Shown here piece by piece: positions 13,973 through 31,200 of a stretch of 64,000 nucleotides of DNA. A program made the translations under genes and the position numbers. The DNA is taken from contig NZ_VCPE01000003.1 in assembly GCF_005938105.1 (NCBI RefSeq), forward strand, positions 1 to 64,000, written 5' to 3'. The stretch comes from Brucella haematophila (GTDB lineage Bacteria; Pseudomonadota; Alphaproteobacteria; Rhizobiales; Rhizobiaceae). The first letter of the stretch is position 1. Every line of letters starts with the position of its first letter. The notes below the pieces were generated by a model. That model searched no databases. It had not been told where the DNA came from and was given only the letters and a program-made list of their open reading frames with translations.

Positions 13973-13989
13973 TGATCTGCCGACTTAGA

Positions 13990-14589: not shown

Positions 14590-14618
14590 GCCACATCAAT
14601 CTCGTGAATTTTTTGATA

Positions 14619-14626
14619 GAATATTC
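14619..14626. promoter_or_regulatory. GAATATTC palindrome in the divergent promoter region
   Basis: A perfect 8-base palindrome lies in the AT-rich 101-base gap between the XRE-cupin gene and the divergent decarboxylase-like gene. A possible operator for the XRE protein, but short enough to be chance. Confidence 0.25.
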
Positions 14627-14690
14627 ATATAAACGATGTTATCGACTCATTCCATCACGTCTGTCAACACATTTCGCTAAAGGAACGATC

Positions 14691-16188: not shown

Positions 16189-17034
16189 TCAAGGATGAGG
16201 ACTATCGCTGGACGGACGTCCCGAGTTAACGAAAACGTCTCGCTGTTCTGCTTCAAAAATGAACCTTGTGATAGTCGCCGCAAAATCGTCAGGTGCTACA
16301 CGCGGGTAAAAATGTCCCCCGCTCATCTCTGCAAAAGAGGCGTGAGCGATGCATTTAGCAAGTTCTTCCATACGATCAAACGGGATCATGATATCATCTC
16401 TCGCACCTATTAAAAGTACAGGTTGCCTGATGTTCGAGAGTGACTCTGAGCGGTCAAAATCCAGCAACATTCTGATTCGTTGCGCCGTGATAGAATAAGG
16501 GGCGAGCATTTCCCCGGCCTTCTCAACGGCAGCATTGAGTTCCGTTTCGTGCCGTGCGATCCATTCCGATGTATAGCCGAAAACATGTGTGAGGTTCTGA
16601 TAGGCAGCAACCTCACCCTTCTCCATCAGTTCCAGACGCGACAAAAAAAGCGCACGAAAGCGTGCGTCCGGACGCGCCCAACTGCCACTGATAACCAGCG
16701 ATTTCGCTCTTTCCGGCGCATCAAGCGCGATGGTCTGCACCACCGTCCCGCCAGTGGAATGTCCCACCAGGTGCGCGGCGTCGATCTCTTCCGCGTCAAG
16801 AACTGAGAGAACATCACTCGCGATCCGTTCGATGGAATAGCCACCATCAGGGCGGTCACTACGTCCCGCACCACGATGATCGACAGTAATCAGCCGAAAC
16901 TCTGGTAGTGCCTTCGCGACACCGGCCCAGAAACGTCCGTCACCGCCCAGACCGGGGATGAGCACGACCGGCTCACCCTCGCCTTTAGTTTCGTAATAAA
17001 GACGGCAGCCGTCATCAGCCAATACAAACGCCAT
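16189..17034 (-). CDS. Alpha/beta hydrolase (enol-lactonase-like)
   Basis: 281 aa. Alpha/beta-hydrolase fold with oxyanion region LIPGLGGDGRFW, VDHRGAGRSD, nucleophile elbow GHSTGG (Ser93), and the catalytic His in SGGHFYPR, giving a complete triad region. Similar in style to 3-oxoadipate enol-lactonase and carboxylesterases, and I cannot choose. Last gene of the ten-gene minus-strand operon, 17 bases after the second racemase-like gene. The last residues (VNSGRPSSDSPHP) run towards the IS6 remnant and could be altered by that insertion. Confidence 0.87.
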   Translation of the reverse strand: MAFVLADDGCRLYYETKGEGEPVVLIPGLGGDGRFWAGVAKALPEFRLITVDHRGAGRSDRPDGGYSIERIASDVLSVLDAEEIDAAHLVGHSTGGTVVQTIALDAPERAKSLVISGSWARPDARFRALFLSRLELMEKGEVAAYQNLTHVFGYTSEWIARHETELNAAVEKAGEMLAPYSITAQRIRMLLDFDRSESLSNIRQPVLLIGARDDIMIPFDRMEELAKCIAHASFAEMSGGHFYPRVAPDDFAATITRFIFEAEQRDVFVNSGRPSSDSPHP

Positions 17035-17051
17035 TTTCTACGCTCTTTGGA

Positions 17052-18083
17052 TCAGTTACCAGGCCAAGTGTCGCCGAGCCGGAATCCGGTCGGAAACGGG
17101 TCAGTTGGATCGAGTACATAATTATGGAATGCTGTGATCCAGGCTTGTCCCGTAATCGCCGGGCGAATGGCGGGCATTTCTCCGCATGTCGTCTCTTCCA
17201 GCACACGGCCGATAAATTCGGTGCCGATGATCGATTCATGCACGAAGGTTTCTCCAACAGCGATCTGACCCCGCGCATGCATCACCGCCAACCGCGCGCT
17301 CGTGCCCGTGCCGCAGGGCGAGCGGTCGATACGACCCGGCGAAACGATTACAGCATTGCGCGAGCGCTTAACGCCGTCGCGCTCTTCCAGCGGCCCTGCG
17401 AACAAGGTCTGGTTGATTGTGTGGATTGCCGGATTCTCAGGATGGATGGCCGGAACCTGTTCCGCCGCAGCCTTCTTGATCCGCTCGCCGACCTCTACGA
17501 GCTTGGCGGCTTCGGTCTTATCGACATTGAAACCGATGGATGCCGCATCAACCAGCACATAGATCATCCCTCCATAAGCGACATCGACAGTGATGGTGCC
17601 TAGACTCGGCACATCCACCTTGGCGTCCAACGCGAAAACGAAAGATGGCACATTGTCGAATGTTACGCTGACGCATTTACCATTTTCACAATGCGCGGTC
17701 ACGGGTACCAGACCTGCTGGCGCTTCCAACACCAGCCTTGTTTCCGGTTCCTGCATAGGGATCATGCCGGTTTCCAGCAGCGCCGTTGTGGTGCAGATCG
17801 TGTTGGTGCCGGACATCGGCACATAGAAGTCCGATTCCATAATGACGAAACCGGCGTCCGCTTCCGGTCTTGTGGCTGGCAGAACAAGATTGACGCATTG
17901 TGTCACCCGGCCGCGCGGTTCGTTCAGCAGGAAGTTGCGCAGATCGTCGGCCTTGCTTTCAAGATACTGCATCTTCTCGAACATCGAGGCACCCGGCACG
18001 TCGAGGACGCCGCCAGTAATCACCTCATTCAGTTCTCCCGCTGCATGCACACCGACGACATTGACCATTTTGGAAAAACGCAT
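17052..18083 (-). CDS. Proline racemase-superfamily protein with Ser/Cys dyad
   Basis: 343 aa of the proline racemase/4-hydroxyproline epimerase/trans-3-hydroxyproline dehydratase family. The C-terminal catalytic site is intact (DRSPCGTGTSARL), but the first site reads PMSGTNTIC instead of the usual MCGHG: Cys to Ser and His to Thr. In this family the residue pair decides chemistry: Cys/Cys enzymes racemise or epimerise, Thr/Cys enzymes dehydrate trans-3-hydroxy-L-proline, and Ser/Cys members have been linked to mixed or dehydratase-like activity. The call is therefore family-level. Starts four bases after the DapA-like stop. A Cys/Cys paralogue lies in the same operon (21092-22093). Confidence 0.88.
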   Translation of the reverse strand: MRFSKMVNVVGVHAAGELNEVITGGVLDVPGASMFEKMQYLESKADDLRNFLLNEPRGRVTQCVNLVLPATRPEADAGFVIMESDFYVPMSGTNTICTTTALLETGMIPMQEPETRLVLEAPAGLVPVTAHCENGKCVSVTFDNVPSFVFALDAKVDVPSLGTITVDVAYGGMIYVLVDAASIGFNVDKTEAAKLVEVGERIKKAAAEQVPAIHPENPAIHTINQTLFAGPLEERDGVKRSRNAVIVSPGRIDRSPCGTGTSARLAVMHARGQIAVGETFVHESIIGTEFIGRVLEETTCGEMPAIRPAITGQAWITAFHNYVLDPTDPFPTGFRLGDTWPGN

Positions 18084-18086
18084 GTT

Positions 18087-18986
18087 TCAGTCCTTCCAAG
18101 CTGCGAGCTTGGCGATCGTGTCATTCACGACGCTTTCGACATACACGCGTTCATCGCCCCCAAGCGGCAGGCGCGGTTCACGCACCCATTCAGGCGCACC
18201 ATAAACCAGCTTTTCGGCAAGCTTAATGTATTGCACCAGTTTCACATGTGTATCGAGGTGGAAGGACGGTGTCAGCAACCGGTAAAGCCTGCGTGCTTCG
18301 GCAAAATCGCCGGACGAAGCGAGAGCAAACAGCTTGACGCATTCGGCTGGCCAAACATTGGTCATGCCCGACACCCAGCCCGTGACGCCGAGCGCCAGAC
18401 TTTCAACGATCAGATCGTCCACACCACAAAACACCGAGAAGCGGTCACCACAAACATTGTAAAGGTCGGTCACACGGCGGATATCCCCGCATTCCTCTTT
18501 GATACAGAGGATGGATGGCGTGTCTTCAAGCTGCTTGAGGATTTCCGGCGTGACGTCGACGCCATAGGCAATCGGATTGTTGTAGATCATGATCGGGAGG
18601 CCGCTGCTTGCAGCGAGCGACTTGTACCAGGCCACGGTTTCACGCGCATCGGTCTTATAGGCAAGTGACGGAAAAGCCATCAGCCCCTGAGCACCCAGCT
18701 TTTCGTAACGACGTGCTGCTGCACCCGCATCCGCCGTGGAAATCTGCGCAAGACCGGAAAGAAGCGGCACGCGACCAGCCACAGCTTCCTTGGCGGCCAG
18801 GATCACTTGGTCACGTTCTTCCGCTTTGAGCGATGCATTTTCGCCCAGCATCGGCAGAACGATGACCCCCGAAACACCATTCGAAATCAGCCTGTCAATG
18901 GAGGCCGCGGTTGCATCAAGATCGAGTGCGCCGTCCTGCTTCAGCTTGGTAGTCACAGCCGGGAATACACCAGTCCAGTGTGTCAT
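18087..18986 (-). CDS. DapA/NAL-superfamily lyase, probable 1-pyrroline-4-hydroxy-2-carboxylate deaminase type
   Basis: 299-aa TIM-barrel of the dihydrodipicolinate synthase/N-acetylneuraminate lyase superfamily. Schiff-base Lys163 in CIKEECGD and Tyr135 in IMIYNNP are in place; VLPMLGENASL replaces the common GTTGE loop, so it is not a standard DapA. In hydroxyproline catabolism a DapA-like enzyme deaminates 1-pyrroline-4-hydroxy-2-carboxylate to 2-oxoglutarate semialdehyde; the linked epimerase and oxidase make this the leading guess. No 2-oxoglutarate-semialdehyde dehydrogenase is in this operon. ATG 18986 overlaps the mutase stop by four bases. Confidence 0.87.
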   Translation of the reverse strand: MTHWTGVFPAVTTKLKQDGALDLDATAASIDRLISNGVSGVIVLPMLGENASLKAEERDQVILAAKEAVAGRVPLLSGLAQISTADAGAAARRYEKLGAQGLMAFPSLAYKTDARETVAWYKSLAASSGLPIMIYNNPIAYGVDVTPEILKQLEDTPSILCIKEECGDIRRVTDLYNVCGDRFSVFCGVDDLIVESLALGVTGWVSGMTNVWPAECVKLFALASSGDFAEARRLYRLLTPSFHLDTHVKLVQYIKLAEKLVYGAPEWVREPRLPLGGDERVYVESVVNDTIAKLAAWKD

Positions 18987-20767
18987 GCTCTTGTTCCCTC
19001 TCTGGAAGTTTTTATGAAATTTTCGATAAAGTGAGTCATCACTTCCGGCGTCTCACAAGGCAGGGCGCCGAGCGCTTCGATATCCGCTTTGACATCCACA
19101 GGAAGACCAGAATTGGAATCTTCAGGTATCTCGTTGAGCCGCCCGCCTATAAGCACGGGCATGTCGGAACCGGCAGCTTTCAACACGGCAAGCACATCAC
19201 GCGCATAACGCAGCGCAATGCCGTTATAGGTCGAGATAGCGATGAAATCGGCGCTCTCAGCAATGGCGGCGGCAACCACGGTTTCGGGGTCTGCCGAGGT
19301 ACCACCATCGACAATGCCGACAGCGCTCATGCCCAGAATGCGCTCTATCAGGTTCTTGCCATGTTCATGAACATCCGATGAGGCGACGCAGCAGCGCAAA
19401 GCCCGTTCGGCAATGGCAGCGCGGGCGGTTTCCGGCACCCGGTCCACCCATTCATGAGCGCTTTCCTCAAGGTCCTCGACCCACTCGGCCAGCATCACCG
19501 AACGACGTCCACCCCATGCGGTGGCATCTTCGCGACCCGCACCATAGAGGCTTTCCAGTCGTTTCGGCCCGATCCGCCGGAGAGCCAACATGAGGGCTGC
19601 CGCATCATCAATATCGACGCCCGCCTCTTCCAACCCTGAAAAAACATTTGCACTAAAGCGCTGCCCGGCTTCGATCAAGCCATCGGCGGCCTTGTCAACC
19701 TGGGCCAGATCAATCAGGCTTGCCGTGGAGATAGCATGTTCAGCCATGCGGGTGGCAAAGGTCTGGGCATCAATGATTTCATCAATGTCGGGAATACGCT
19801 GGTTTTCCGTGACCGGAACCGGGTTGATCGCATGGCCGGTATGCTCCCGCGCCAAAGCCCATATGTCGGCCTGCAAATAGCTCGCCAAACTCGCATAATT
19901 GCCTGCCGGGTTCGACTTGTAGCTCACCGTATTGCCAAAGAGCATGGTGCCCGGTGCATCGCTGAATGTGGCCAATGCCTTGTGAAATGCCATGCGAACC
20001 AATGGCGCGGTGTAGTGATGGCCGAAGCAGTGCGACATGCGCCCGCCGATAAGGTTCTCAACAATATGGCGCTCAATCAACACCATGCCGAGCGCCGAAC
20101 TCATGTCGGCAAACAGGCCCGCAAAACCGTCATCGAGATTGGAATGGACGAGAACTGCCTCATCTTGTGCGGCAATCAGTCCAAGCGCGGTGACCGCAGC
20201 TTCAGTCGTCGCAACATCGTCATCCCAATAAGGCAGGCGGAACGTAAAATATTGCCCCAGATTGCCGATGGCCGTAGCGCCTGCCGCAAGCGCGCCCTTG
20301 GTATTTTCGACAGCGCCTGGCAGACCAAGCATGAAGTCACCGAAATGCGCGGCCGCAGGTGCCGCATTGGTGATACGGGCAAAATCTTCGGGACCATTCA
20401 GCACTATGCCGGTTCCCTTGGGTCGGTCCTTGCGTAGCGCCACCGGATAGCCCATCGACCAGTCTAGTGTGATGCCGAAACGATCGACCGTCACACCACG
20501 GCTGGCGCAAGTGCCATGCACTTCGCTGATTGCTTCGACCGTGCGTTCAACGCTGCGAAAACCGATATGTGCATGTTGCATCATACGGCCTTCGGCAACT
20601 TTGCGACGCTTGTATTCGGCCTCGCAGGCAACATTGTTCTCCGAGAGAAAGGCATTTTTGCCCACCCGCCAGTCGCGGGCGAGTTGCCTGCCTTCGGCAA
20701 CAAGATCGGCTCCCGGCTTCATTCGCTCAGGCACAAGATCGGCAAGGGCAGGCAGAACGGCTTTCAT
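18983..20767 (-). CDS. B12-dependent mutase, glutamate (methylaspartate) mutase-like, catalytic and cobalamin domains in one chain
   Basis: About 594 aa from ATG 20767, immediately after the NIPSNAP stop (translational coupling); the frame stays open to 20860 but that part overlaps the NIPSNAP gene. Residues 1 to about 440 resemble the MutE-type TIM barrel (GFRSVERTVEAI, FGITLDWSMGYP, GHAINPVPVTENQRIPD). The last 136 residues are a MutS-type cobalamin-binding Rossmann domain: SSDVHEHGKNL has the DxHxxG signature with His467 as expected axial Co ligand, then VGIVDGGTSADPE and VLIGGRLNE. In clostridial glutamate mutase these are two separate proteins. Reaction here is unknown: a carbon-skeleton or amino-group shift on an amino acid is the family expectation. 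Confidence 0.82.
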   Translation of the reverse strand: MKAVLPALADLVPERMKPGADLVAEGRQLARDWRVGKNAFLSENNVACEAEYKRRKVAEGRMMQHAHIGFRSVERTVEAISEVHGTCASRGVTVDRFGITLDWSMGYPVALRKDRPKGTGIVLNGPEDFARITNAAPAAAHFGDFMLGLPGAVENTKGALAAGATAIGNLGQYFTFRLPYWDDDVATTEAAVTALGLIAAQDEAVLVHSNLDDGFAGLFADMSSALGMVLIERHIVENLIGGRMSHCFGHHYTAPLVRMAFHKALATFSDAPGTMLFGNTVSYKSNPAGNYASLASYLQADIWALAREHTGHAINPVPVTENQRIPDIDEIIDAQTFATRMAEHAISTASLIDLAQVDKAADGLIEAGQRFSANVFSGLEEAGVDIDDAAALMLALRRIGPKRLESLYGAGREDATAWGGRRSVMLAEWVEDLEESAHEWVDRVPETARAAIAERALRCCVASSDVHEHGKNLIERILGMSAVGIVDGGTSADPETVVAAAIAESADFIAISTYNGIALRYARDVLAVLKAAGSDMPVLIGGRLNEIPEDSNSGLPVDVKADIEALGALPCETPEVMTHFIENFIKTSREGTRA

Positions 20768-20769
20768 GG

Positions 20770-21084
20770 TTACACCATCGGTGAAAGAGCGGTTGGCTTG
20801 AGAATACGTATGGTCTGACGTTCGATTAGGCCCTTGATCGCTTCGAGATAGGTCTGCCATCCAGGGTGAGCGAGCATGCGGGTGCGCCTCTCCTCACGCT
20901 CGGCGATATTCTCATACCGCCAGAGCGCAACTACATGGTTCAATTCGCCAATATCGCAAACGAAGTGTCCGACAAAACCGCCGAGAATTTCCGTCTGAAT
21001 GGCGACACCGAGCTTTTCATAGGTCGCAAGGAACTCAGCCATCCGACCCGGAACAATATGATAATCACGCTCTTCGAGGATCAT
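20770..21084 (-). CDS. NIPSNAP-family protein
   Basis: 104 aa. The pattern MILEERDYHIVPGRMAEFLATY, cut here as YHIVPGRMAEFL, followed by LGGFVGHFVCDIG, LNHVVALWRYEN and AEREERRTRMLAHPGW, is the NIPSNAP ferredoxin-like fold. Bacterial members are small proteins in catabolic operons whose role is poorly known. The stop lies next to the mutase ATG (20767), and it follows the epimerase gene by seven bases, so it is firmly in the operon. It may be an accessory to the mutase or an isomerase-like enzyme; I cannot tell. Confidence 0.85.
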   Translation of the reverse strand: MILEERDYHIVPGRMAEFLATYEKLGVAIQTEILGGFVGHFVCDIGELNHVVALWRYENIAEREERRTRMLAHPGWQTYLEAIKGLIERQTIRILKPTALSPMV

Positions 21085-21091
21085 TGTTCGC

Positions 21092-22093
21092 TCACTTCAC
21101 TTGAAAGCCGAGAGCAAGCGGATCACGCTCGTCCACGAGTATGGTGTTATAACCGGTGACACGCGCCCAACCGCCAATGCTCGGGCGAATGGCGGGACGA
21201 CCCGCAACTTCTGCGGCACTTTCCACGCGACCATGGAACAGCGTGCCGATGATCGATTCATGCACGAAGGTTTCGCCAACTTTCAGCAAACCCTTGGCGA
21301 CCCGCTGTGCCATGCGCGAGGATGTGCCAGTGCCGCACGGCGAGCGATCGATCGCCTTATCACCATAGAACACGGCATTGCGCGCATCGGCTTCGGGATG
21401 TTTGCCCTTGTCAGCCCACATAACATGGCTGACCCCGGCAATGCGGTCGTCTTCCGGATGCACCGGAGCGACAACGTCCTGCACCAGTTTGCGCACCAGC
21501 GGGCTGATCTTGAGAATGTCGTCGGCGCTCATCGTGTCGAGACCAACCCAGTTTTTTTGCGGCTCGATGATGGCATAGAAATTGCCGCCATAGGACACAT
21601 CGACCACCAGTTCGCCCATACCCGGAACATCAATCTTCGCTTCGCTTGCGTGAAGATAGGCGGGCACATTGTAGATGCGGACCTCATCCACGAAACGGCC
21701 ATTGCGTTTGTATTCAACCTCGACACGACCGGCGGGCACTTCCAGCACCAGCTTGCCTTCGGTCTTCGGCACGACAAAGCCCTGTTCCAGCGCTACCGTC
21801 ACGGTGCCTATGGTACCGTGTCCGCACATGGGCAGACAGCCCGACACTTCAATGAACAGCACGCCGAGATCACAATCGTCGCGGGACGGCGGATAGAGGA
21901 TCGAGCCGGACATGACATCGTGGCCGCGCGGTTCGAACATCAGCGCCTGACGCACCCAGTCGTGGTCACGCAGGAAAAGCTGGCGTTTTTCAGCCATGCT
22001 GACATTGGGCAGGATCGGCGCACCGCCAGAGACGACACGGACCGGGTTGCCGCATGTATGGGCATCGACACAAATGAAGGTGTGGGGATTCAT
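21092..22093 (-). CDS. 4-hydroxyproline 2-epimerase (proline racemase family, Cys/Cys)
   Basis: 333 aa. Both catalytic cysteines are present: PMCGHGTIGT and DRSPCGTGTSSRM. Members of this group epimerise trans-4-hydroxy-L-proline to cis-4-hydroxy-D-proline, the first step of hydroxyproline catabolism; the Brucella homologue PrpA belongs here. It is followed by NIPSNAP and preceded, 13 bases away, by a FAD amino-acid oxidase that would take the D-product. A 340-codon open frame on the opposite strand is a shadow. Proline racemisation itself remains possible. Confidence 0.88.
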   Translation of the reverse strand: MNPHTFICVDAHTCGNPVRVVSGGAPILPNVSMAEKRQLFLRDHDWVRQALMFEPRGHDVMSGSILYPPSRDDCDLGVLFIEVSGCLPMCGHGTIGTVTVALEQGFVVPKTEGKLVLEVPAGRVEVEYKRNGRFVDEVRIYNVPAYLHASEAKIDVPGMGELVVDVSYGGNFYAIIEPQKNWVGLDTMSADDILKISPLVRKLVQDVVAPVHPEDDRIAGVSHVMWADKGKHPEADARNAVFYGDKAIDRSPCGTGTSSRMAQRVAKGLLKVGETFVHESIIGTLFHGRVESAAEVAGRPAIRPSIGGWARVTGYNTILVDERDPLALGFQVK

Positions 22094-22106
22094 GTAAGGC
22101 TCCAGG

Positions 22107-23333
22107 TCAGGAAAAACGGCTGACGGAAAATGGTGAAAGATCGATGGGTGGTTTTTTTCCTGCTACCAGATCGGCGACCAGGCGGCCTGTTGTCGGCCCG
22201 AGCGTCAGACCACCATGGCTGTGACCATAGGCATGGATAATGTCATTGCGGCGCGGCGAGCGCCCGATGACCGGCAGAGTATCCGGCGTCGTTGGTCGAT
22301 GTCCCATCCAGCGGGTGCCGTCAGTCGACTTGAGATCGGGCAGGTAACGGCGCGCTAGTTTGGCCAACGCATCGCTGCGTGCATAGTTCGGTGCAGCCTC
22401 CAGACCCGCAAATTCGGCAGCGCCACCGATCCGCAACCCCATATCCATGGGTGTCGCGACAAACTTGCGCTCGGCAAAAATCACTTCACGCGTGAGCGAC
22501 ACGCCCGAATTGGGAATCGTGATATTATAACCACGCTCACTTTCAAGAAGAACGCGGTCGCCAATGGTCCTTGCAAGTCTTGGCGACCATGCGCCGATCG
22601 CAATGACCAGTTGATCAAAGCCAATGGCGCTCCCACCCGACAGGCGCAACTGCTGGCCATCGATTGCGTGCGCTTCACCTGTTACGAGCGTCGCCCCTTT
22701 GGCGACCACCAGATCGCGCAGGCGATCCACCACACGCTTGGGGTCATCAAAATGCGACCATTGCGGCGTCAAAGCCGCACGCACCACCGCCTTGCCGAGT
22801 GCCGGTTCGAGCCTGCGAGCGTCGTCACCGTCCATCTCATCGAAGACAACACCATACCTGCGCCGCAGTTCACGATCTGCCGCATCAGCCTTAAAAGCAG
22901 CCTCGGTCTCATAGACCCAGAGTGCCCCGACCTGATGCAATTCACCTGTCAGTTTGAGTTCTTCGAGAAGCGGCAGATAATCCTCATAGACTGGCGCGGT
23001 CAACGCGGCGAGTGCCTTGGTAATACGCAGCATTTCCGACTGTGACCCGCTGCGCATGAAACGCACCAACCAAGGCACAAGTTTGGGAAAATGGGCGGGG
23101 CGCAGGGAAAGCGGCCCAAGCGGATCAAGCAGCCAGCCGGGTATTTTCCAGATCAGGCCCGGCACGCTGGCCGGTACGATCTCGGTCACGCCAAGGCCAC
23201 CGGCATTGCCGAACGATGCCTTGTCACCCGTCGGGTCGCGGTCGACAATGGTGACCTCATGTCCCTCGGCGAGAAGCGAACGCGCCGCGCTCAATCCGAC
23301 GATACCGGCTCCTGCAATGAGAATATGGCTCAT
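22107..23333 (-). CDS. FAD-dependent D-amino acid oxidase/dehydrogenase (DadA family)
   Basis: About 408 aa from ATG 23333 (MSHILIAGAG). N-terminal FAD-binding motif GAGIVGLSAARSLLAEG with the ribose-binding Asp in TIVDRDP; the C-terminal FAD contact region reads WMGHRPTTPDTLPVIGRSP and HAYGHSHGGLTLGP. Fits the DAO/DadA group, which oxidises D-amino acids; cis-4-hydroxy-D-proline is the natural candidate because the epimerase is the next gene. ATG 23345 is an alternative start without better signal. It starts 16 bases after the aspartate-dehydrogenase-like gene. Confidence 0.87.
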   Translation of the reverse strand: MSHILIAGAGIVGLSAARSLLAEGHEVTIVDRDPTGDKASFGNAGGLGVTEIVPASVPGLIWKIPGWLLDPLGPLSLRPAHFPKLVPWLVRFMRSGSQSEMLRITKALAALTAPVYEDYLPLLEELKLTGELHQVGALWVYETEAAFKADAADRELRRRYGVVFDEMDGDDARRLEPALGKAVVRAALTPQWSHFDDPKRVVDRLRDLVVAKGATLVTGEAHAIDGQQLRLSGGSAIGFDQLVIAIGAWSPRLARTIGDRVLLESERGYNITIPNSGVSLTREVIFAERKFVATPMDMGLRIGGAAEFAGLEAAPNYARSDALAKLARRYLPDLKSTDGTRWMGHRPTTPDTLPVIGRSPRRNDIIHAYGHSHGGLTLGPTTGRLVADLVAGKKPPIDLSPFSVSRFS

Positions 23334-23349
23334 TCGGCATTCCATCCAT

Positions 23350-24165
23350 TCATTGTTCCGGGATCAACCGTCCGGCTAAATAATGTGTGACTTCGCGCAA
23401 CAGGCTCGCTGCCGTGATCGCCGATGTCTTTGGATTGTCGGGCGACGGCAGATTGGCGAAGCGCATGAAGGCCTCACCGAATGCGCTGCTGGCTTCGATC
23501 TCATGCGTGTTCAACCGGACCGCAGGATCGGCCACCACACGAACGGCAGTGCGCCCAATCCCGGCAGCGAGCGCAACGGTCAGCCCGGCATTGAGATTGC
23601 GAGGATAGAGTTGCGCGGCGCGTATCGCGTCGCCCTCATAGAGAACGACCGCCTCCTTCAGCGCTGCCGGATCATGCCCCAGTTGCCTTAATTCACCTGC
23701 CCAAGCAGACACAGGCTTGCGCGACGTATAGGTGACGGAAAGATCAGTCGCCTGCGCGACCACGCCCAAATAATCGAGACCACCCACAGCGCCGGTTGGA
23801 AAGATTAGACGCCCACCCCCCTTGTGGCCCGCTTCGGCCGCTGTCTGCTGGAAAGCGACGTCACCGATAGCTCCGACCGAGGCCGCAATCACATCCACAC
23901 CAGCGCTTAAAAAAACCGGACAGGACGCTTTCAAGGCATCCTGTCCGGCAGCCTCAATGACAAGGGCAGGTTTCAATGCCAGCAACGCTTCGATAGAATC
24001 GACAAACTGGACCCTTTGGGGTGGCTGGTCCGGCGTTGCAGCACCTTTGCGCAGAACCACACTGACCTTACAACTATAGGTCAGAAGCTTGCTGCACAAA
24101 TCCCTGCCGATGGCACCGAAGCCCAAAAGAGCGATGTGGGGCAATTGTTCAGGCGCCGTGATCAT
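23350..24165 (-). CDS. Aspartate dehydrogenase-like oxidoreductase (NadX family)
   Basis: About 271 aa from ATG 24165 (MITAPEQLPHIALLGFGAIG). Rossmann motif GFGAIGRDLC, then VIEAAGQDALK, VIAASVGAIGD, FPTGAVGGLDYL and the C-terminal DPAVRLNTHEIEASSAFG, all typical of L-aspartate dehydrogenase (DUF108). The frame upstream of 24165 overlaps the SDR. Such enzymes make or use iminoaspartate with NAD(P). In this operon, beside a glutamate-mutase-like protein, the substrate may be another amino dicarboxylate or its methyl or hydroxy derivative (inference). Confidence 0.85.
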   Translation of the reverse strand: MITAPEQLPHIALLGFGAIGRDLCSKLLTYSCKVSVVLRKGAATPDQPPQRVQFVDSIEALLALKPALVIEAAGQDALKASCPVFLSAGVDVIAASVGAIGDVAFQQTAAEAGHKGGGRLIFPTGAVGGLDYLGVVAQATDLSVTYTSRKPVSAWAGELRQLGHDPAALKEAVVLYEGDAIRAAQLYPRNLNAGLTVALAAGIGRTAVRVVADPAVRLNTHEIEASSAFGEAFMRFANLPSPDNPKTSAITAASLLREVTHYLAGRLIPEQ

Positions 24166-24181
24166 ATCAATTGCAACTCTA

Positions 24182-24934
24182 TTACCAGGCTGACATGCCG
24201 CCATCGACGGTGAACATAGCTCCCGTCGCAAACGACGCTTCATCCGAGGCAAGCCACAGAATGCAGTTTGCGATTTCCTGCGGTTCGGCCCAGCGGTTGA
24301 TTGGCGAACGCGCTTTCAAGGCGTTCTTGAAAGCATCCGGATCAGGCGTTGTCGCAACCATCTTTTCGAAATAGCTCGACCAGGTCACGCCCGGCGCGAC
24401 GCAATTGACACGTATTTTTTCCTTGGCATGGTCAAGTGCCATTGCCTTGGTCAACGCGGCAACTCCGCCTTTCGACGCGACATAGGCCGCGCGATCGAAG
24501 ATGCCGACCGTCGCAACATTGGAAGCGGTGTTGACGATCGTGCCGCCGCCCTGCGCAGCCATGACCGGGATCGCATGCTTACAGCACAGATAGACGCCCT
24601 TGAGATTGACGGCCATCAGCGCGTCCCAGTCCTCTTCCGCCGTATCGACGACTGTGCCGGGAATGCCGTAACCGGCATTATTGGCCAGAATGTCGAGACG
24701 GCCAAACGTCTTGACCGTCGTATCGATCATGGCCTTGACTTCCTCGGAACTGGAAACGTCAACAGTGAACGATAGCGCAGAAGCGCCAAGTTCGGCCGCG
24801 ACTGCCGCAGCCTTCGCACCGTCGCGATCCGCGACGATGACTTTCGCACCTTCGCGCACAAAAATTTGAGCGGCGGCCTTGCCGATACCGGCACCCGCGC
24901 CGGTGATAATGGCGACTTTGTCTTTGAGACGCAT
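24182..24934 (-). CDS. Short-chain dehydrogenase/reductase
   Basis: About 250 aa from ATG 24934 (MRLKDKVAIITGAGAGIGKAA). Cofactor motif TGAGAGIG, LANNAGYG, and YVASKGGVAAL with the catalytic Tyr/Lys; VDGGMSAW end is classical. The preceding eight codons from 24958 lack homology. NAD preference is suggested by Asp in VIVADRDG. Second gene of the hydroxyproline-type operon, 110 bases after the cupin. Its substrate is probably a hydroxy or keto acid of the pathway. Confidence 0.89.
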   Translation of the reverse strand: MRLKDKVAIITGAGAGIGKAAAQIFVREGAKVIVADRDGAKAAAVAAELGASALSFTVDVSSSEEVKAMIDTTVKTFGRLDILANNAGYGIPGTVVDTAEEDWDALMAVNLKGVYLCCKHAIPVMAAQGGGTIVNTASNVATVGIFDRAAYVASKGGVAALTKAMALDHAKEKIRVNCVAPGVTWSSYFEKMVATTPDPDAFKNALKARSPINRWAEPQEIANCILWLASDEASFATGAMFTVDGGMSAW

Positions 24935-25044
24935 GTTTTCCTCGAATATAAGCGGCATGCCGACCCACCAATCGCGGGCCGCCTCAAGCCTTGTTGAAAT
25001 GCTGGCCTCAGCCAGACATAAACTGGATATTGAACGGAAGCGGA

Positions 25045-25581
25045 TCAGACCTTGTGCGGGTCGGACGGCGGCACCGCGAAAACCGTGTCACGCTCGATCT
25101 GCAAAACATTCTCCGGCCGGGGGAACGGTTCCGGCGCAGGCTCCCCATCGGCGCGGACGCGCCCAATCAGGCGAAAGAAATCCTCGAGACCGTTCGGCAC
25201 GATAAGCCAGGTCCAGAAAATATCGGTCTCGCCTTCATTGATGAACATATGGCGGCGGTTCTTGCCGATGAAAAATGCAGAGCCGGGTATCATTTCATGG
25301 CTCTCGCCATCGATCACCGCACGGCCCTTGCCGGAAACCACGAAAATGACTTCCTCATTCTGGTCATGCGCATGTTCGCGAACATAACCGCCCGGCGGAA
25401 CGGTTTGTGTGCCGAAGCCGATCGGATGTTCCATGGGAACACGGTGCGGGGCAAAGATGACATCGATGGAACCGTTTGCCGGTACGGGCTGCCAGTAACT
25501 TTCGGCAGCACCGGGCTGCACAATAAGGACCTCTCCACAGGGGCCCTCACCGGCGACGGCCCGCGTTTTTTCATTCGTCAT
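25045..25581 (-). CDS. Cupin-domain protein
   Basis: 178 aa from ATG 25581, set by the RBS CAGGGGAATAAA; the open frame to 25644 crosses the promoter region. A cupin_2 barrel: PPGGYVREHAHDQNEEVIFV gives the metal-binding HxHxxxE set, cut here to REHAHDQNEE, and the second motif reads PGSAFFIGKNRRHMFIN with the second His. Could be an isomerase, dioxygenase or sensor. First gene of the ten-gene minus-strand operon; its promoter faces the GntR gene across about 185 bases. Confidence 0.85.
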   Translation of the reverse strand: MTNEKTRAVAGEGPCGEVLIVQPGAAESYWQPVPANGSIDVIFAPHRVPMEHPIGFGTQTVPPGGYVREHAHDQNEEVIFVVSGKGRAVIDGESHEMIPGSAFFIGKNRRHMFINEGETDIFWTWLIVPNGLEDFFRLIGRVRADGEPAPEPFPRPENVLQIERDTVFAVPPSDPHKV

Positions 25582-25615: not shown

Positions 25616-25634
25616 ATTGGATACGATATACAAT
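25616..25634. promoter_or_regulatory. Candidate GntR operator near the cupin operon promoter
   Basis: ATTGGATACGATATACAAT contains ATTGGATAC and the near-inverted ATATACAAT. The ATTGGATAC half recurs inverted as GTATCCAAT at 25740-25748, next to the GntR start. FCD-type GntR operators often follow TNGTNNNACNA-like palindromes. Confidence 0.4.
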
Positions 25635-25736
25635 CGTAATGCAAAAAATGTCGCCGTCAACGTCAAAAGTGAAATTATTTTTCTATATTTGTTATATTAG
25701 AGTACATGTTTTCATTCTTGACTCCAGAATTTGCAT

Positions 25737-25748
25737 ATTGTATCCAAT
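25737..25748. promoter_or_regulatory. Candidate GntR operator near its own start
   Basis: ATTGTATCCAAT has palindromic ATTG/CAAT ends and lies 18 bases before the GntR start codon, where binding would block its own expression. Mirror partner of the site at 25616-25634. Confidence 0.4.
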
Positions 25749-25766
25749 TTAGAAATGGAGAATTCG

Positions 25767-26444
25767 ATGTCGAAAAAAATCGGGCGGCAATCCCTGACAG
25801 ATCAGATCGTGGTGGAATTGCGCCGCCGCATCATTGCAGGTGAACTGAGCGAAGGCACCCCGCTGCGTCAGGAAGCGCTGGCAACCGAACTTGGCGTTTC
25901 GCGCATTCCGATCCGCGAGGCGATCCGTCAACTTGAGGCAGAAGGCTTCGTTCAGTCCGAACTCCACAAGGGAACAGTCGTTCGCGCCTTGTCGCTGGCA
26001 GAAATCCAGGAACTCTTCGATATCCGCATCCATCTCGAGACGTGGCTGTTCGAAACGGCAATCCCGCGCCTCAGCGAAGCCGATTTGTTGCGCGCCGAGC
26101 AGTTGACCGACGAGACGATGGTCGAAGGCAATGTCGAGAACTGGGGTGACCTGAACTGGCAGTTTCACGAAACGCTTTATGCGCCAAGTGGCCGCACGGT
26201 AGCCCTGAAACTGCTCAAGAGCGTACATGATAACGCCAATCGCTACATCAATCTCCAGATCGCTGTGGCACAGGACGTGGAACTGGAACTAGCCGATCAC
26301 CGCGCCATCCTCGCCTATGCTCGCCTTCGGGACACAGAACGTGCGGTGGGATCGTTGCGTATGCACATCCAGCGCGTCGCCAACAATCTGATGACATCAC
26401 TGATCGAGAGTCGTTCAGACCGCAGGGATCAGGAAACTGCCTAA
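25767..26444 (+). CDS. GntR-family regulator, FCD subfamily
   Basis: About 225 aa from ATG 25767, with GGAG seven bases upstream. The winged helix spans residues 5-70 (LTDQIVVELRRRIIAGELSE, PLRQEALATELGVSRIPIRE), followed by the all-helical FCD ligand domain with metal-ligand candidates in RIHLET, NWQFHETLY and DHRAI. FCD regulators usually sense a small carboxylate. It sits between the divergent ten-gene operon and the Liv importer and probably controls both. Confidence 0.92.
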   Translation: MSKKIGRQSLTDQIVVELRRRIIAGELSEGTPLRQEALATELGVSRIPIREAIRQLEAEGFVQSELHKGTVVRALSLAEIQELFDIRIHLETWLFETAIPRLSEADLLRAEQLTDETMVEGNVENWGDLNWQFHETLYAPSGRTVALKLLKSVHDNANRYINLQIAVAQDVELELADHRAILAYARLRDTERAVGSLRMHIQRVANNLMTSLIESRSDRRDQETA

Positions 26445-26535
26445 AGAGAAATAAGGAGCAGCAGCGGATAACAGCTCATCCGCCAAGGCAAAATAAAACC
26501 GGTCAAAAAGGCCAGAAAAACCAAAAGAGGGTAAC

Positions 26536-27648
26536 ATGAAAGCGTACAAGAAGTTTCTCGTCGCAACCATTGCGGCTGTGGGCGTGACCAGCACCGCACA
26601 TGCGGATATCGTCATAGGTGCGGCGGGACCGCTTACCAATGCCGAATCCATTTTCGGTGTAACCTGGATGAACGGTATGGAGATCGCTATCCGTCAGGTT
26701 AACGAGGCTGGCGGCATCCACGGTGAGAAAGTCGTGCTCCAGCGCGATGACGACAACGCCGATCCGAAACAGGGCACGCTGATCGCCCAGAAGCATTGCG
26801 ATAATGCCGCGATGATGGGCGTCGTTGCCAATTTCAACAGCGGCGTTACCATTCCGTCTTCCGACGTCTATCATCGGTGCGATCTACCTCAGGTAACTAA
26901 CGCCTCCAACCCGAAGGTCACCCAATCGGGTTACAAGAATCTCTTTCGTCCGATTGCAAACGATCTTTCGCAGGGGTCAGCTCCTGCCGATTACGCCGTC
27001 AAGACTCTCAAAGCAAAAGCTGCCGCTGTGGTTCATGACAAGCAAGCCTTTGGACAAGGCGTGGCCGAAGTGTTCCGCGACACTTTCACCAAGGACGGTG
27101 GCAAGGTGACGTCCTTCTCCGGTGTCACCCAAACCGACGTCGATTTCTCCGCGCTTCTGACCAGCATACGTTCCGAAAATCCGGACGTGATCTATTTTGG
27201 CGGCGTCATGCCTGCCGTTGGTCTCTTCGTGAAGCAGGCGCGTGAATTCGGCATCAAAGCGACCATTTTTGCCGCAGACTCCGCTTTCGCACCGGACTTC
27301 ATCAATGGTGCCGGCCCGGAAAACGCCGAAGGCGCTATCGTGTCCTTCCAGGCACCGCCTTACGACTCCTCACCGGAACTCGAAGCTTTCGCCAAGTCCT
27401 ACAAGGACGCATTTGGTGAAGATGCCGGACCATACTCGGCTTATGGCTATGTGGAGGCTTCGGTCATTCTCGAAGCCATGAAAAAGCTGCCTGCGCCACT
27501 TTCCCGCAAGGCCATTTCGGAAGAGATTGCCAAAACCAATCTCAAAACAATGGTTGGCACGGTTTCCTTCAAGCCGGATGGCGAACTGAACACGCCCTTC
27601 ATCTTCCTTTACAAGGTCGAAGGCGGCAAGTTCGCCCTTGTGAAGTAA
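26536..27648 (+). CDS. livJ: Branched-chain amino acid-type ABC transporter binding protein (second system)
   Basis: 370 aa, secreted to the periplasm by a Sec signal ending STAHA before DIVIGAAGPLTNAESIFG. LivJ fold: NEAGGIHGEKV, DDNADPKQGTLIAQKHCD, VVANFNSGVTIPSSD. It resembles the first system's binding protein (4997-6118) across its length, so the two are paralogues. RBS AAGAGGGTAAC precedes the ATG. It opens livJHMGF next to the GntR gene and is probably the importer for the substrate of the mutase operon; hydroxyproline or a related imino acid is the guess. Confidence 0.9.
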   Translation: MKAYKKFLVATIAAVGVTSTAHADIVIGAAGPLTNAESIFGVTWMNGMEIAIRQVNEAGGIHGEKVVLQRDDDNADPKQGTLIAQKHCDNAAMMGVVANFNSGVTIPSSDVYHRCDLPQVTNASNPKVTQSGYKNLFRPIANDLSQGSAPADYAVKTLKAKAAAVVHDKQAFGQGVAEVFRDTFTKDGGKVTSFSGVTQTDVDFSALLTSIRSENPDVIYFGGVMPAVGLFVKQAREFGIKATIFAADSAFAPDFINGAGPENAEGAIVSFQAPPYDSSPELEAFAKSYKDAFGEDAGPYSAYGYVEASVILEAMKKLPAPLSRKAISEEIAKTNLKTMVGTVSFKPDGELNTPFIFLYKVEGGKFALVK

Positions 27649-27662
27649 AACGCCTGACGAGA

Positions 27663-27687
27663 ACGGGCCCTCTCCTTCGGGGCCCGT
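27663..27687 (+). other. Intercistronic hairpin between livJ and livH
   Basis: Perfect stem ACGGGCCC/GGGCCCGT with a 9-base loop, 15 bases after livJ. No T run follows, so it is more likely a partial terminator or 3' stabiliser that keeps binding-protein mRNA in excess over the permease part. Confidence 0.5.
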
Positions 27688-27788
27688 GATCAATGGCTGG
27701 AATCGGTGCGTCCGGGAATCCCCTATGTCATTGAGCATGGCCAAGCCATGCTTGTCCCCGGCGCTCCTCGACAATCGAGGCTTCGCAG

Positions 27789-28730
27789 ATGTCTTCCTTC
27801 CTTCTCCAGCAAACCGTCAACGCGCTGACGGTTGGCTCGATCTATGCGCTGATCGCGCTCGGCTACACGATGGTTTACGGCGTTCTGCGCCTCATCAATT
27901 TCGCGCACAGCGAAATGTTCATGTCGGGTGCGTTCGTTGCTGTCTTTCTGAGCGGATCGCTCGGCATTTCCGGGTTCCCCGGTGCGGCCATTGTCGTCGG
28001 CGTTCTCGCTTTCGTTATTATCGGCATCCTCGGCATGTCGATCGAAGTTGCAGCCTATCGACCATTGCGCAACAAATCGCGCCTCGCCCCCATGCTATCG
28101 GCCCTCGGTATGGCCGTCATCATCCAGAATGTCGTTATGCTTCTGGCGGGCCGCCGTCCGATCATCTATCCGTCTATGCTGCCGAGCGGTGTGATCGAAA
28201 TTGGTGGTATCATCATCACCTGGAAACAAATTACAATTCTCGCCATCGCACTTATTCTGATGGTGACGCTGGAACTTTTCGTCAATCGCAGCCGTATAGG
28301 CATCCGCATCCGCGCAGTCGCGGAAAACGCCAATACCGCGTCGTTGATCGGCATCAATCCCAACATCCCGATCTCCGTGATCTTCTTCATCGGCCCCGGC
28401 CTCGGTGCAGTAGCTGGCTTGCTCTACGCGTCCTATTATGGCGTCGCGACCTTTACGATGGGCTTCGTCATTGGCATGAAAGCCTTCACGGCGGCCATTC
28501 TTGGCGGCATAGGCTCTATTCCCGGTGCAATGCTCGGCGGCATCATGCTTGGCTTTATCGAGACATTCGCAACTGCTCTCCTGCCCGGCCTCACCGGCGG
28601 TATCATCGGTACGGAATATCGCGATATTTTCGCCTTTTCCGTTCTTGTTCTCATCCTTCTGTTCCGTCCGTCCGGTCTTCTGGGCGCCAAGGTCAGCGAA
28701 GAAACGATGGTGTATAAAAGTGACTTCTGA
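27789..28730 (+). CDS. livH: Branched-chain amino acid-type ABC transporter permease LivH (second system)
   Basis: 313-aa inner-membrane protein. ALTVGSIYALIALGYTMVYG at the N-terminus and AFTAAILGGIGSIPGA near the C-terminus are shared almost word for word with the first system's LivH, and the C-terminal KVSEETMVYKSDF also matches that protein's VSEETTVYKSDF. Pairs with LivM to form the channel. Preceded by a 140-base gap after livJ with hairpins. The close similarity of the two LivH proteins suggests a shared ancestry of the two operons. Confidence 0.92.
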   Translation: MSSFLLQQTVNALTVGSIYALIALGYTMVYGVLRLINFAHSEMFMSGAFVAVFLSGSLGISGFPGAAIVVGVLAFVIIGILGMSIEVAAYRPLRNKSRLAPMLSALGMAVIIQNVVMLLAGRRPIIYPSMLPSGVIEIGGIIITWKQITILAIALILMVTLELFVNRSRIGIRIRAVAENANTASLIGINPNIPISVIFFIGPGLGAVAGLLYASYYGVATFTMGFVIGMKAFTAAILGGIGSIPGAMLGGIMLGFIETFATALLPGLTGGIIGTEYRDIFAFSVLVLILLFRPSGLLGAKVSEETMVYKSDF

Positions 28731-28740
28731 AGCTCCTTCC

Positions 28741-29733
28741 ATGAGCGCAGGCACCGCGCCGACACCAACAACTGGCGCCCTTGGGCGCACCTTGCTGGTG
28801 CTCGCGATCTTCCCCCTCGCTCTTATCATTCTCGGACAATTCCTGCCGACCTATCCGCTACGCGTGCTCGATACGATCCTGCTGTATGCCGTATTGGCGA
28901 TGGGATTGAACATCGTTGTCGGTTATGCCGGTCTTCTCGATCTGGGCTATGTCGCCTTCTACGCTATCGGTGCCTATACTTATGCGCTTCTGGCTTCGGA
29001 CCAGCTTGGATTGCATCTGCCCTTCCCGGTCATTCTGGTCATTGGTGCGACGCTGGCCGGTATTGCCGGTGTCTTGCTCGGACTGCCGGTGCTGCGACTG
29101 CGGGGGGACTATCTCGCCATCGTCACGCTCGGTTTCGGCGAAATCATCCGCGTGCTGATGAACAATCTCAACTGGCTCACCAACGGTCCACAGGGCATCG
29201 CCCGCATAGACGAACCAAAACTGCTCGGCTGGACCATCTCCACCCCGCTGGACTTCCTCTATTTACTGATCGGCTTCCTAATCCTCACCTTCCTGTTCGT
29301 GTGGAAACTCCAACAAAGCGCGCTAGGCATCGCCTTATCAGCCGTGCGCGAGGACCAGGACGCAGCACGTGGCTGTGGGGTTAACACCACCAAGGTCAAG
29401 CTCGTCGCCTTCGCCACCAGCGCAGTGATTGGCGGCATTTGCGGCGTGGTTTTTGCCTCCATGCAGCGCTTTGTCAGCCCTGAAAGTTTCACCTTCTGGG
29501 AATCGCTCACAATCGTGCTCGTGCTGGTGGTCGGTGGTCTCGGCAATCCGTTCGGTGCCATGCTGGGTGCGGCCATTCTGGTTCTGATCCCCGAACTCAT
29601 GCGCGATTATGCCGACTATCGCCAGTTGGTCTTCGGCCTCGCCCTCGTCGCCGTCATTCTGATGCGCCCGATGGGCATCATCAGTCGTCATTATGGTCCC
29701 TCGTGGCTTGTCGCCAAACTGGGGAGGCGCTGA
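28741..29733 (+). CDS. livM: Branched-chain amino acid-type ABC transporter permease LivM (second system)
   Basis: About 330 aa from ATG 28741 (MSAGTAPTPTTGALG); a GTG at 28720 overlapping the livH stop is an alternative. Polytopic membrane protein with GLNIVVGYAGLLDLGYVAF, VLRLRGDYLAIVTLGFGE and the coupling loop AVREDQDAARGCGVN. The frame upstream to 28525 overlaps livH. The stop TGA overlaps the livG ATG. Confidence 0.9.
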   Translation: MSAGTAPTPTTGALGRTLLVLAIFPLALIILGQFLPTYPLRVLDTILLYAVLAMGLNIVVGYAGLLDLGYVAFYAIGAYTYALLASDQLGLHLPFPVILVIGATLAGIAGVLLGLPVLRLRGDYLAIVTLGFGEIIRVLMNNLNWLTNGPQGIARIDEPKLLGWTISTPLDFLYLLIGFLILTFLFVWKLQQSALGIALSAVREDQDAARGCGVNTTKVKLVAFATSAVIGGICGVVFASMQRFVSPESFTFWESLTIVLVLVVGGLGNPFGAMLGAAILVLIPELMRDYADYRQLVFGLALVAVILMRPMGIISRHYGPSWLVAKLGRR

Positions 29734-30566
29734 TGCTTGCGTTTGAACATGTAACCAAGAGCTTTGGTGCGCATAAGGCCGTCGATGACGCTTCCCTCGT
29801 CATGATGCCGGGGAAGATCACCTCCATCATCGGCCCCAACGGCGCGGGCAAATCCACCCTTGTCAATATGGCGGCCGGTTCCTATCAGGTCTCATCGGGC
29901 CGCATTGTCCTCGACGGCGTCGAATTACAACGCTTGCCCAAGCATGGCGTCGCCCATGCCGGACTGGGGCGCACCTATCAGAACATCCGGCTGTTCGACG
30001 GCATGACAGTGATGCAGAACCTTGAAGTGGCGCTCGTTCCGCGCACGCTCACCGCTCTTATCACCGATGCCCTGCCCGGACGCAGTGCCGAACGTCATCG
30101 CCGTAACAAATGCTATGCCATTCTTGAAAAGCTGGGCATTGCCCATCACGCCCAACGGCAAGCCGGTTCGCTCGCCTACGGTCAGCAGAAGCTGGTCGAG
30201 TTGGCTCGGGCAATGGTTAACGACCCGCATGCCATTCTCCTCGATGAACCAGCAGCAGGCCTCAACCATGGCGAGACGGAAGAACTGAAGCACCACATTC
30301 TCGATTTGAAAACAGGAGACATCGCCGTAGTTCTAATCGAGCACGACATGAAGCTCATCATGTCCATTTCGGATGAGATCTATGTGATGAATCGCGGCAG
30401 CGTGCTAGCGCATGGAACGCCCACCGAAATCCGCAACAATCAGCAAGTTCAGGAGGCTTATCTTGGCCAGCCAGGTGCAATCAGTGACATCGAAGCCGCT
30501 GCTCGCAGTCGAGCAAATCGAGTCCGGATACGGGCGGGTGAAGGTCTTGCATGGCATCAGCCTTGA
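29733..30566 (+). CDS. livG: Branched-chain amino acid-type ABC transporter ATP-binding protein LivG (second system)
   Basis: About 277 aa from ATG 29733, where GGGAGG lies just upstream and the TGATG overlap couples it to livM. Walker A GPNGAGKS, LivG-type signature LAYGQQKL, Walker B LLDEPAAGLN and VLIEHDMKLIM are visible. The C-terminal QEAYLG codons carry the AGGAGG for livF, and about 100 bases of coding sequence overlap livF. Confidence 0.92.
   Translation: MLAFEHVTKSFGAHKAVDDASLVMMPGKITSIIGPNGAGKSTLVNMAAGSYQVSSGRIVLDGVELQRLPKHGVAHAGLGRTYQNIRLFDGMTVMQNLEVALVPRTLTALITDALPGRSAERHRRNKCYAILEKLGIAHHAQRQAGSLAYGQQKLVELARAMVNDPHAILLDEPAAGLNHGETEELKHHILDLKTGDIAVVLIEHDMKLIMSISDEIYVMNRGSVLAHGTPTEIRNNQQVQEAYLGQPGAISDIEAAARSRANRVRIRAGEGLAWHQP
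30451..30456 (+). promoter_or_regulatory. Internal ribosome binding site for livF inside livG
   Basis: AGGAGG formed by the livG codons for QEAYLG, six bases before TTG 30463. Mirrors the site at 2195-2200 in the first system. Confidence 0.6.
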
Positions 30567-31200
30567 GCTGCATGCTGGCGAAATTGTTTCCCTCATTGGT
30601 CCCAATGGCGCAGGCAAAAGCACGCTCCTGCGCTCCATAAGCGGAGTGTGCCCAATCTCTGCGGGACAGATCAGCTTCAAGGGCGAGCGCATCGATCGCA
30701 TGAAGCCATATCAGATTGCCAATCGCGGTCTGGGCCATTGCCCCGAAGGACGCGCCGTCTTTCAACATCTGTCCATTGAAGAAAACCTGATGGCCGGTTA
30801 TCTGGATGGCCGCGGCAAGTCGGAAGCCGAGTTGTTCGAATATGTCTATGGCCTGTTTCCCGTGCTTGCCGACCGCCGGAAGAGCTTGGCGGGACGTCTG
30901 TCCGGCGGCCAGCAACAGATGGTGGCCATTGCCCGTTCGCTGATGGGCAATCCCGAGCTTCTGCTACTCGATGAGCCTTCGCTGGGTCTGGCGCCGATCA
31001 TCATTCACCAGATTTTCGAGATCATCATCAAGCTCGCCGAGGCGGGTGTGTCCATTGTTCTGGTCGAACAGAATGTCGATCTGTCCCTTGAAATTGCCGA
31101 CTATGTTTATGCGTTCGAGCATGGCCAGATTCACGTCTCCGGCCCGGCTGACAAGTTGTCCGGCGATGCGCGCGTGCGTGAAATTTACCTCCCAGCTTAA
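30463..31200 (+). CDS. livF: Branched-chain amino acid-type ABC transporter ATP-binding protein LivF (second system)
   Basis: About 245 aa if TTG 30463 is the start. The choice rests on AGGAGG six bases upstream and on equal N-terminal length with the first system's LivF (24 residues to the GYG motif in both). The only ATG (30412) precedes the RBS and lies deep within livG. Walker A GPNGAGKS, CPEGRAVFQ, signature LSGGQQQM, Walker B LLLLDEP and LVEQNVDLSL are present. A hairpin at 31222-31254 follows the stop. Confidence 0.9.
   Translation: MASQVQSVTSKPLLAVEQIESGYGRVKVLHGISLELHAGEIVSLIGPNGAGKSTLLRSISGVCPISAGQISFKGERIDRMKPYQIANRGLGHCPEGRAVFQHLSIEENLMAGYLDGRGKSEAELFEYVYGLFPVLADRRKSLAGRLSGGQQQMVAIARSLMGNPELLLLDEPSLGLAPIIIHQIFEIIIKLAEAGVSIVLVEQNVDLSLEIADYVYAFEHGQIHVSGPADKLSGDARVREIYLPA

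What the first reader, a model, noticed from the sequence alone, without database searches (positions are those of the whole stretch)
16189..25581. Ten-gene operon centred on a one-chain B12-dependent mutase: possible undescribed imino/amino acid catabolic pathway
Seen: cupin, SDR, NadX-like dehydrogenase, DadA-like oxidase, Cys/Cys hydroxyproline epimerase, NIPSNAP, MutE/MutS-like fused mutase (DVHEHG signature), DapA-like lyase, Ser/Cys racemase paralogue and alpha/beta hydrolase on one strand, mostly with short gaps or overlaps. Known: epimerase, oxidase and DapA-like deaminase make 2-oxoglutarate semialdehyde from 4-hydroxyproline. Inference: the mutase, NIPSNAP and NadX-like steps mean a different or extended substrate, since the known route needs no carbon-skeleton rearrangement.
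Basis: partly seen in the sequence, partly recalled or inferred. Interest (0 to 1): 0.82.

Follow-up and report, generated by a model that had tools for sequence, protein, structure and literature searches.

The report
Undescribed B12 mutase family in operon
A self-contained gene set in soil and plant bacteria, next to its own regulator and importer, appears to break down an unknown ring-shaped amino acid using a vitamin-B12 enzyme of a family whose reaction is not known.

The parts
16189..17034 (-). alpha/beta hydrolase (RutD/PcaD-like)
   Evidence: Pfam PF00561; NCBIfam RutD 164 bits, under its cut-off of 238.5; in 15 of 15 type A loci
17052..18083 (-). proline-racemase-family enzyme with Ser/Cys pair
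   Evidence: PF05544; T3LHypDht 440 bits, under cut-off 550; Ser/Cys pair
18087..18986 (-). DapA/DHDPS-family lyase, overlaps the mutase gene by 4 bases
   Evidence: PF00701; the only one of the window's genes found beside the mutase in Acetobacter L037
18983..20767 (-). one-chain B12-dependent mutase homologue (594 aa): GlmE-like barrel about 15-435, mutase-type B12 domain about 454-588, DVHEHG at 465-470
20770..21084 (-). NIPSNAP-family protein
   Evidence: PF07978
21092..22093 (-). 4-hydroxyproline epimerase-like protein, Cys/Cys pair
   Evidence: PRK13971 577 bits, over cut-off 376; Cys/Cys
22107..23333 (-). DadA-like FAD amino acid oxidase/dehydrogenase
   Evidence: PF01266; D-amino acid dehydrogenase 197 bits, under cut-off 383
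23350..24165 (-). NadX-like (aspartate dehydrogenase family) dehydrogenase
   Evidence: PF01958 and PF03447; subfamily model NF009828 179.1 bits, just over cut-off 177; L-aspartate dehydrogenase 2dc1
24182..24934 (-). SDR oxidoreductase
   Evidence: PRK06138 353 bits, over cut-off 312
25045..25581 (-). cupin protein, first gene of the operon
   Evidence: PF07883
25617..25633 (.). palindromic operator-like site 1 (TTGGATACGATATACAA)
   Evidence: one of only two exact matches in the 5.5 Mb genome
25731..25747 (.). palindromic operator-like site 2 (TTGCATATTGTATCCAA)
25755..26444 (+). GntR-type regulator, divergent
   Evidence: ORF; called GntR by eye from the sequence, no family search run; similar gene in 15 of 15 type A loci
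26536..31200 (+). Liv-type ABC transporter: binding protein, two permeases, two ATPases
   Evidence: ORFs, named by eye; binding protein matches Leu/Ile/Val-type binding proteins; conserved in type A loci

Best explanation
A GntR-controlled uptake and breakdown unit for one cyclic (proline-like) amino acid. The Liv-type transporter imports it. Racemase-family enzymes, an FAD oxidase, dehydrogenases, a DapA-type lyase and a hydrolase process it. One intermediate is isomerised by an adenosylcobalamin (AdoCbl) mutase of an undescribed family: a GlmE-like barrel fused to a mutase-type B12 domain, working by 5'-deoxyadenosyl radical chemistry as in glutamate mutase, but on a substrate that lacks glutamate's carboxylate pattern. 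Shown here: the operon, its conservation, its two palindromic sites, the mutase fold and B12 motif, and (in a weak alignment) the loss of glutamate-binding residues. Inferred: that GntR binds the sites; use of AdoCbl rather than methylcobalamin; a cyclic amino acid as substrate (from racemase, oxidase and ProC-like neighbours); the order of steps; the breakdown direction. In most relatives a ProC-like imine reductase is found instead of the racemase, oxidase and lyase set, also around closely related mutases, so both sets probably meet the mutase at a cyclic imine or amine.
Confidence: 0.5

Rival explanations
1. An ordinary hydroxyproline operon into which a mutase gene has been recruited for a side task: the epimerase, oxidase and DapA-like enzyme break down 4-hydroxyproline, the Ser/Cys enzyme handles a further isomer, and the mutase acts on a downstream compound.
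For: The epimerase is over the NCBIfam cut-off (577 against 376 bits). Standard-looking racemase, oxidase, DapA-like and aldehyde dehydrogenase operons lie beside the mutase in L127 and L077, and L077 has glutamate mutase, methylaspartase and a fumarase-family hydratase downstream. A Ser/Cys member of the family is a proven 4-hydroxyproline epimerase (PMC4113996, passages). GntR-type control of hydroxyproline genes is reported in Streptomyces (PMC6608401, search listing only).
Against: No semialdehyde dehydrogenase among the ten genes, and no further exact operator site in the genome. DapA-like only 25-27% identical to those of L077 and L127. 72 of 89 long mutase loci have no racemase-family gene. 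The genome has another epimerase-oxidase pair.
Confidence: 0.22
2. The mutase is an aminomutase (amino-group migration with PLP, like lysine 5,6- or ornithine 4,5-aminomutase) rather than a carbon-skeleton mutase.
Confidence: 0.12
3. A corrinoid methyltransferase or demethylase, not a mutase.
For: The C-terminal domain scores to MetH and corrinoid proteins; dimethylglycine-dehydrogenase-like genes lie near some relatives (L091, L099, L103, L161, L169, L173).
Confidence: 0.06

Closest known systems
Glutamate mutase (methylaspartate mutase, GlmE + GlmS)
   Same: Barrel fold, B12 domain with DxHxxG, GlmL-type gene beside two distant members, weak colinear profile alignment
   Different: One chain; not found by PF06368; arginine claw and E171/Y177 not kept in that alignment; different neighbours
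2-methyleneglutarate mutase (Eubacterium barkeri; single chain, recalled)
   Same: Single-chain barrel plus B12 domain of similar size (recalled)
   Different: No sequence at hand to compare; neighbours here do not fit nicotinate breakdown (recalled pathway)
trans-4-hydroxy-L-proline pathway (4HypE, DAAO, DHDPS, aldehyde dehydrogenase; PMC4113996, passages)
   Same: Epimerase, DAAO-type oxidase and DHDPS-family lyase in one operon
   Different: No aldehyde dehydrogenase; extra Ser/Cys racemase-family enzyme, NadX-like, SDR, NIPSNAP, cupin, hydrolase and mutase; divergent lyase
Lysine 5,6- and ornithine 4,5-aminomutase
   Different: PLP site not shown; 10-12% identity

Membership tests
B12 (base-off/His-on) mutase superfamily | B12 domain with DxHxxG and GG motifs | tested here: met
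   PF02310 over cut-off; D465, H467, G541, G542 in 107 of 107 rows, G470 in 101 (A in 6)
B12 (base-off/His-on) mutase superfamily | Mutase-type TIM barrel in front of or beside the B12 domain | tested here: met
B12 (base-off/His-on) mutase superfamily | AdoCbl use and isomerisation | not testable with these tools
   needs purified protein
Glutamate mutase | GlmE sequence family PF06368 | tested here: not met
   only an E 0.27 match elsewhere in the genome; no hit at E 0.01
Glutamate mutase | arginine claw R66, R100, R149 and E171 | tested here: not met
   H67, I99, H141, G168 in the alignment (weak alignment, E 0.03)
Glutamate mutase | two separate subunits | tested here: not met
   one 594-residue chain
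PLP-dependent aminomutase (LAM/OAM) | PLP-binding lysine in the B12-side domain (recalled) | tested here: inconclusive
   no lysine among invariant positions of the B12 domain; structures not superposed residue by residue
Corrinoid methyltransferase/MetH | B12-binding_2 helical cap in front of the B12 domain | tested here: not met
   only PF02310 reported at E 0.01
2-methyleneglutarate mutase | sequence and active-site similarity | not tested
trans-4-hydroxyproline pathway operon | 4HypE-family epimerase with Cys/Cys | tested here: met
trans-4-hydroxyproline pathway operon | DAAO-family oxidase and DHDPS-family lyase | tested here: met
   families met; lyase only 25-27% identical to those of L077 and L127
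trans-4-hydroxyproline pathway operon | 2-oxoglutarate semialdehyde dehydrogenase in the unit | tested here: not met
   none among the ten genes; an aldehyde-dehydrogenase-like ORF at 6229-7662 lies outside the unit
trans-3-hydroxyproline dehydratase | NCBIfam T3LHypDht cut-off 550 | tested here: not met
   440 bits; the genome's other copy scores 636

The most novel reading that the evidence does not exclude
The mutase is the first B12-dependent carbon-skeleton mutase of proline-type amino acids. It converts a branched or ring-isomeric cyclic imino acid (for example a methyl- or hydroxymethyl-proline type compound, or its opened imine) into an isomer that a ProC-like reductase, or the epimerase-oxidase-lyase set, can feed into central metabolism. 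The family has spread through Alphaproteobacteria with exchangeable partner genes.
Probability: 0.25. Interest if true: 0.88.

Novelty: new variant of a known kind. Interest (0 to 1): 0.62.

Why it matters
Natural carbon-skeleton B12 mutases are few (recalled). This family has 242 relatives in one scan of species genomes. Of nine plasmids with a match, three name it 'cobalamin-dependent protein', one 'hypothetical protein', four list no name, and one is a partial match under another name. It comes with linked partner genes, a transporter and a regulator, so its substrate can be sought by growth and induction tests. It would add a B12-dependent step to amino acid turnover in soil, plant and sea bacteria.

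Tried and rejected
Rejected: that the mutase is glutamate mutase itself or a corrinoid methyltransferase. Rejected as too strong: that the mutase belongs to hydroxyproline breakdown in general (racemase family in 17 of 89 long loci). L127 and L077 share one related hydroxyproline-type operon (racemase 68%, oxidase 66%, lyase 78% identical), so they may not be two independent associations.

Led nowhere: searches for a paper on such an operon or mutase. Searches found no paper with all terms; one search found one unrelated paper; one search found 16 with three of four terms, ten listed, none of those ten with 'cobalamin-dependent protein'. These cover open-access PMC papers only. The eLife paper PMC4113996 has no occurrence of B12, mutase or NIPSNAP in its main text. 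One search (2-methyleneglutarate mutase) listed six papers, none opened; one search gave a lead on methylproline making, seen as a listing and starts of abstracts only. Rfam found no cobalamin riboswitch in the window. The profile against one GlmE matched 25 columns only. The solved relatives of the binding protein are Leu/Ile/Val-type and amino-acid-type proteins in general and point to no ligand. My label 'DUF3830' for a neighbour in type B loci was wrong: Pfam and NCBIfam give it no family. The tree is of the quick kind with SH-aLRT support only; ten loci that repeat named loci (L019-L028) and mutase frames under 75% of full length were left out. One search leaves out the same ten loci and uses bit-score thresholds printed there.

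Full report
What is there. Ten ORFs on the - strand run from a cupin (ATG at 25581) to an alpha/beta hydrolase (16189), closely packed. The order is cupin, SDR, NadX-like dehydrogenase, DadA-like FAD enzyme, Cys/Cys 4-hydroxyproline epimerase-like protein, NIPSNAP, B12 protein, DapA-like lyase, Ser/Cys racemase-family protein, alpha/beta hydrolase. A divergent GntR-type gene and a Liv-type ABC transporter (25755-31200) complete the unit (named by eye, the binding protein also). The palindrome TTGNATAYNRTATNCAA has exact matches at 25617-25633 and 25731-25747 and nowhere else in the 5.5 Mb genome. Similar site pairs stand in the same place in the 15 relatives with this architecture (the most-shared words are in 14 of 16 sequences). 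The pattern was taken from these sites, so its absence elsewhere is the informative part.

It is not glutamate mutase. PF06368 does not find it. A profile alignment with eight GlmE-family rows is weak (E 0.03, probability 1.65) but colinear over 299 columns. In it, the arginine claw R66, R149, R100 and the residues E171 and Y177 (PMC10947579, passages) stand opposite H67, H141, I99, G168 and F176; H141 is kept in 104 of 107 rows. E321 stands opposite GlmE E330, which I recall as an adenosine-ribose contact; the paper's main text does not name it. So the cofactor side looks kept and the substrate side changed. Two of the most distant members, L172 and L173 (33-34% identical), adjoin a GlmL-type gene, the accessory protein of glutamate mutase (MutL PF13941 398 and 450 bits; TIGR01319 over its cut-off, the GlmL equivalog model under its own).

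How widespread. Window genome included, 16 of 394 genomes of its family, 17 of 385 of its class and 4 of 398 of its phylum have it. One scan of species genomes found 242 relatives, 80 kept. Nine plasmids have a match, one of them partial.

Neighbourhoods. Type A, the window's set, stands in 15 of 80 named loci (Brucella/Ochrobactrum, Ancylobacter, other Xanthobacteraceae, Bosea sp. 117, Lichenifustis, Methylocapsa): nine genes in all 15, DapA in 12. In Acetobacter (L037), of the window's genes only mutase and DapA-like gene are found in the 21.8 kb seen, in the same order. Type B, 24 of 80, has an FAD enzyme (3-ketosteroid-dehydrogenase-like), cupin, NadX-like and hydrolase genes beside the mutase. 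Of these 24, some cut short by contig ends, 22 also show genes of an acetoin-dehydrogenase-like complex, 21 NIPSNAP and 20 a ProC-like gene; a protein without any family, a carnitine-dehydrogenase-like protein and an SDR are usual too. Six Bosea-type loci (L040-L045) have ProC-like, SDR, cupin and NadX-like genes, and a peptide-type transporter in the one I listed, L041 (by eye). Others have a ProC-like gene alone (L092) or with a PhyH dioxygenase (L088, L093, L095, L104, L109, L111, L160, L163). Over 89 loci of at least 15 kb: ProC-like 58, NadX-like 43, cupin 43, hydrolase 37, NIPSNAP 37, FAD oxidase 18, racemase family 17, DapA-like 16, PhyH 8, GlmL 2, of which one (L077) belongs to true glutamate mutase. 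The window genome has a single P5CR_dimer gene, so one near the mutase by chance would be rare. Racemase family and ProC-like occur together in the loci seen only in L127; in L077 a ProC-like ORF lies further off (L131, by eye).

The tree (107 rows, quick method) puts the window, the 15 type A loci, Acetobacter and the six ProC-bearing Bosea-type loci in one clade of 23 (support 100, order inside unresolved). Closely related mutases thus work with either partner set. This suggests to me that both sets handle the same kind of compound, a cyclic amine or imine. That is an inference.

Hydroxyproline. The eLife study of the racemase superfamily (PMC4113996, passages) gives the standard route: 4HypE, DAAO-type oxidase, DHDPS-type deaminase, semialdehyde dehydrogenase. 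It also shows a Ser/Cys member to be a 4-hydroxyproline epimerase, so Ser/Cys does not by itself mean a dehydratase. Here the semialdehyde dehydrogenase is missing, the Ser/Cys enzyme is below the trans-3-hydroxyproline dehydratase cut-off (440 of 550), and the DapA-like protein is 25-27% identical to those of two standard-looking operons near other mutases, L127 and L077. The same genome has another epimerase with an oxidase (62% and 39% identical) and a Ser/Thr dehydratase over its cut-off. So the window set is a parallel one, likely for another or a further substrate.

Judgement. Firm: a conserved operon with its own regulator, transporter and operator-like sites; a B12 mutase fold; not glutamate mutase. 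Likely: an AdoCbl radical isomerase. Open: substrate, reaction and step order. I file it as a new variant of a known kind (a B12 mutase family without a described function that I could find); the searches were of open-access papers only.

Noticed in passing
L077 17828-21144 and L130 13162-17651: In a Mesorhizobium MAG, genuine glutamate mutase genes (GlmS, GlmL, GlmE; GlmE 581 bits to 6h9e_B and 577 to C. cochlearium 1cb7_B), methylaspartase and a fumarase-family hydratase follow the hydroxyproline-type and mutase genes.
   Followed up: partly
L164 2285-11278: Five tandem mutase frames (one with an in-frame stop) and two ProC-like genes on one 12 kb contig.
   Followed up: partly
L024 4238-5107: A conserved 290-residue protein near the mutase in 27 of 85 loci has no Pfam or NCBIfam family.
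   Followed up: no
L134 7542-9536: Roseibium plasmid: a long gene annotated methylaspartate mutase subunit E between an adenylation-domain gene, an aromatic amino acid lyase and an amino acid racemase, as in a peptide cluster.
   Followed up: no
L132 1-10727: Gemmobacter plasmid: histidine breakdown genes followed by glutamate mutase, methylaspartase, CoA-transferase and CoA ester lyase genes.
   Followed up: no
window 56145-56286: Group II intron D1-D4-7 match on the - strand (57.1 bits).
   Followed up: no
window 13235-15380: Two ORFs that look by eye like acetoacetate-decarboxylase-family proteins flank an XRE-cupin-type regulator; no family search was run on them.
   Followed up: no
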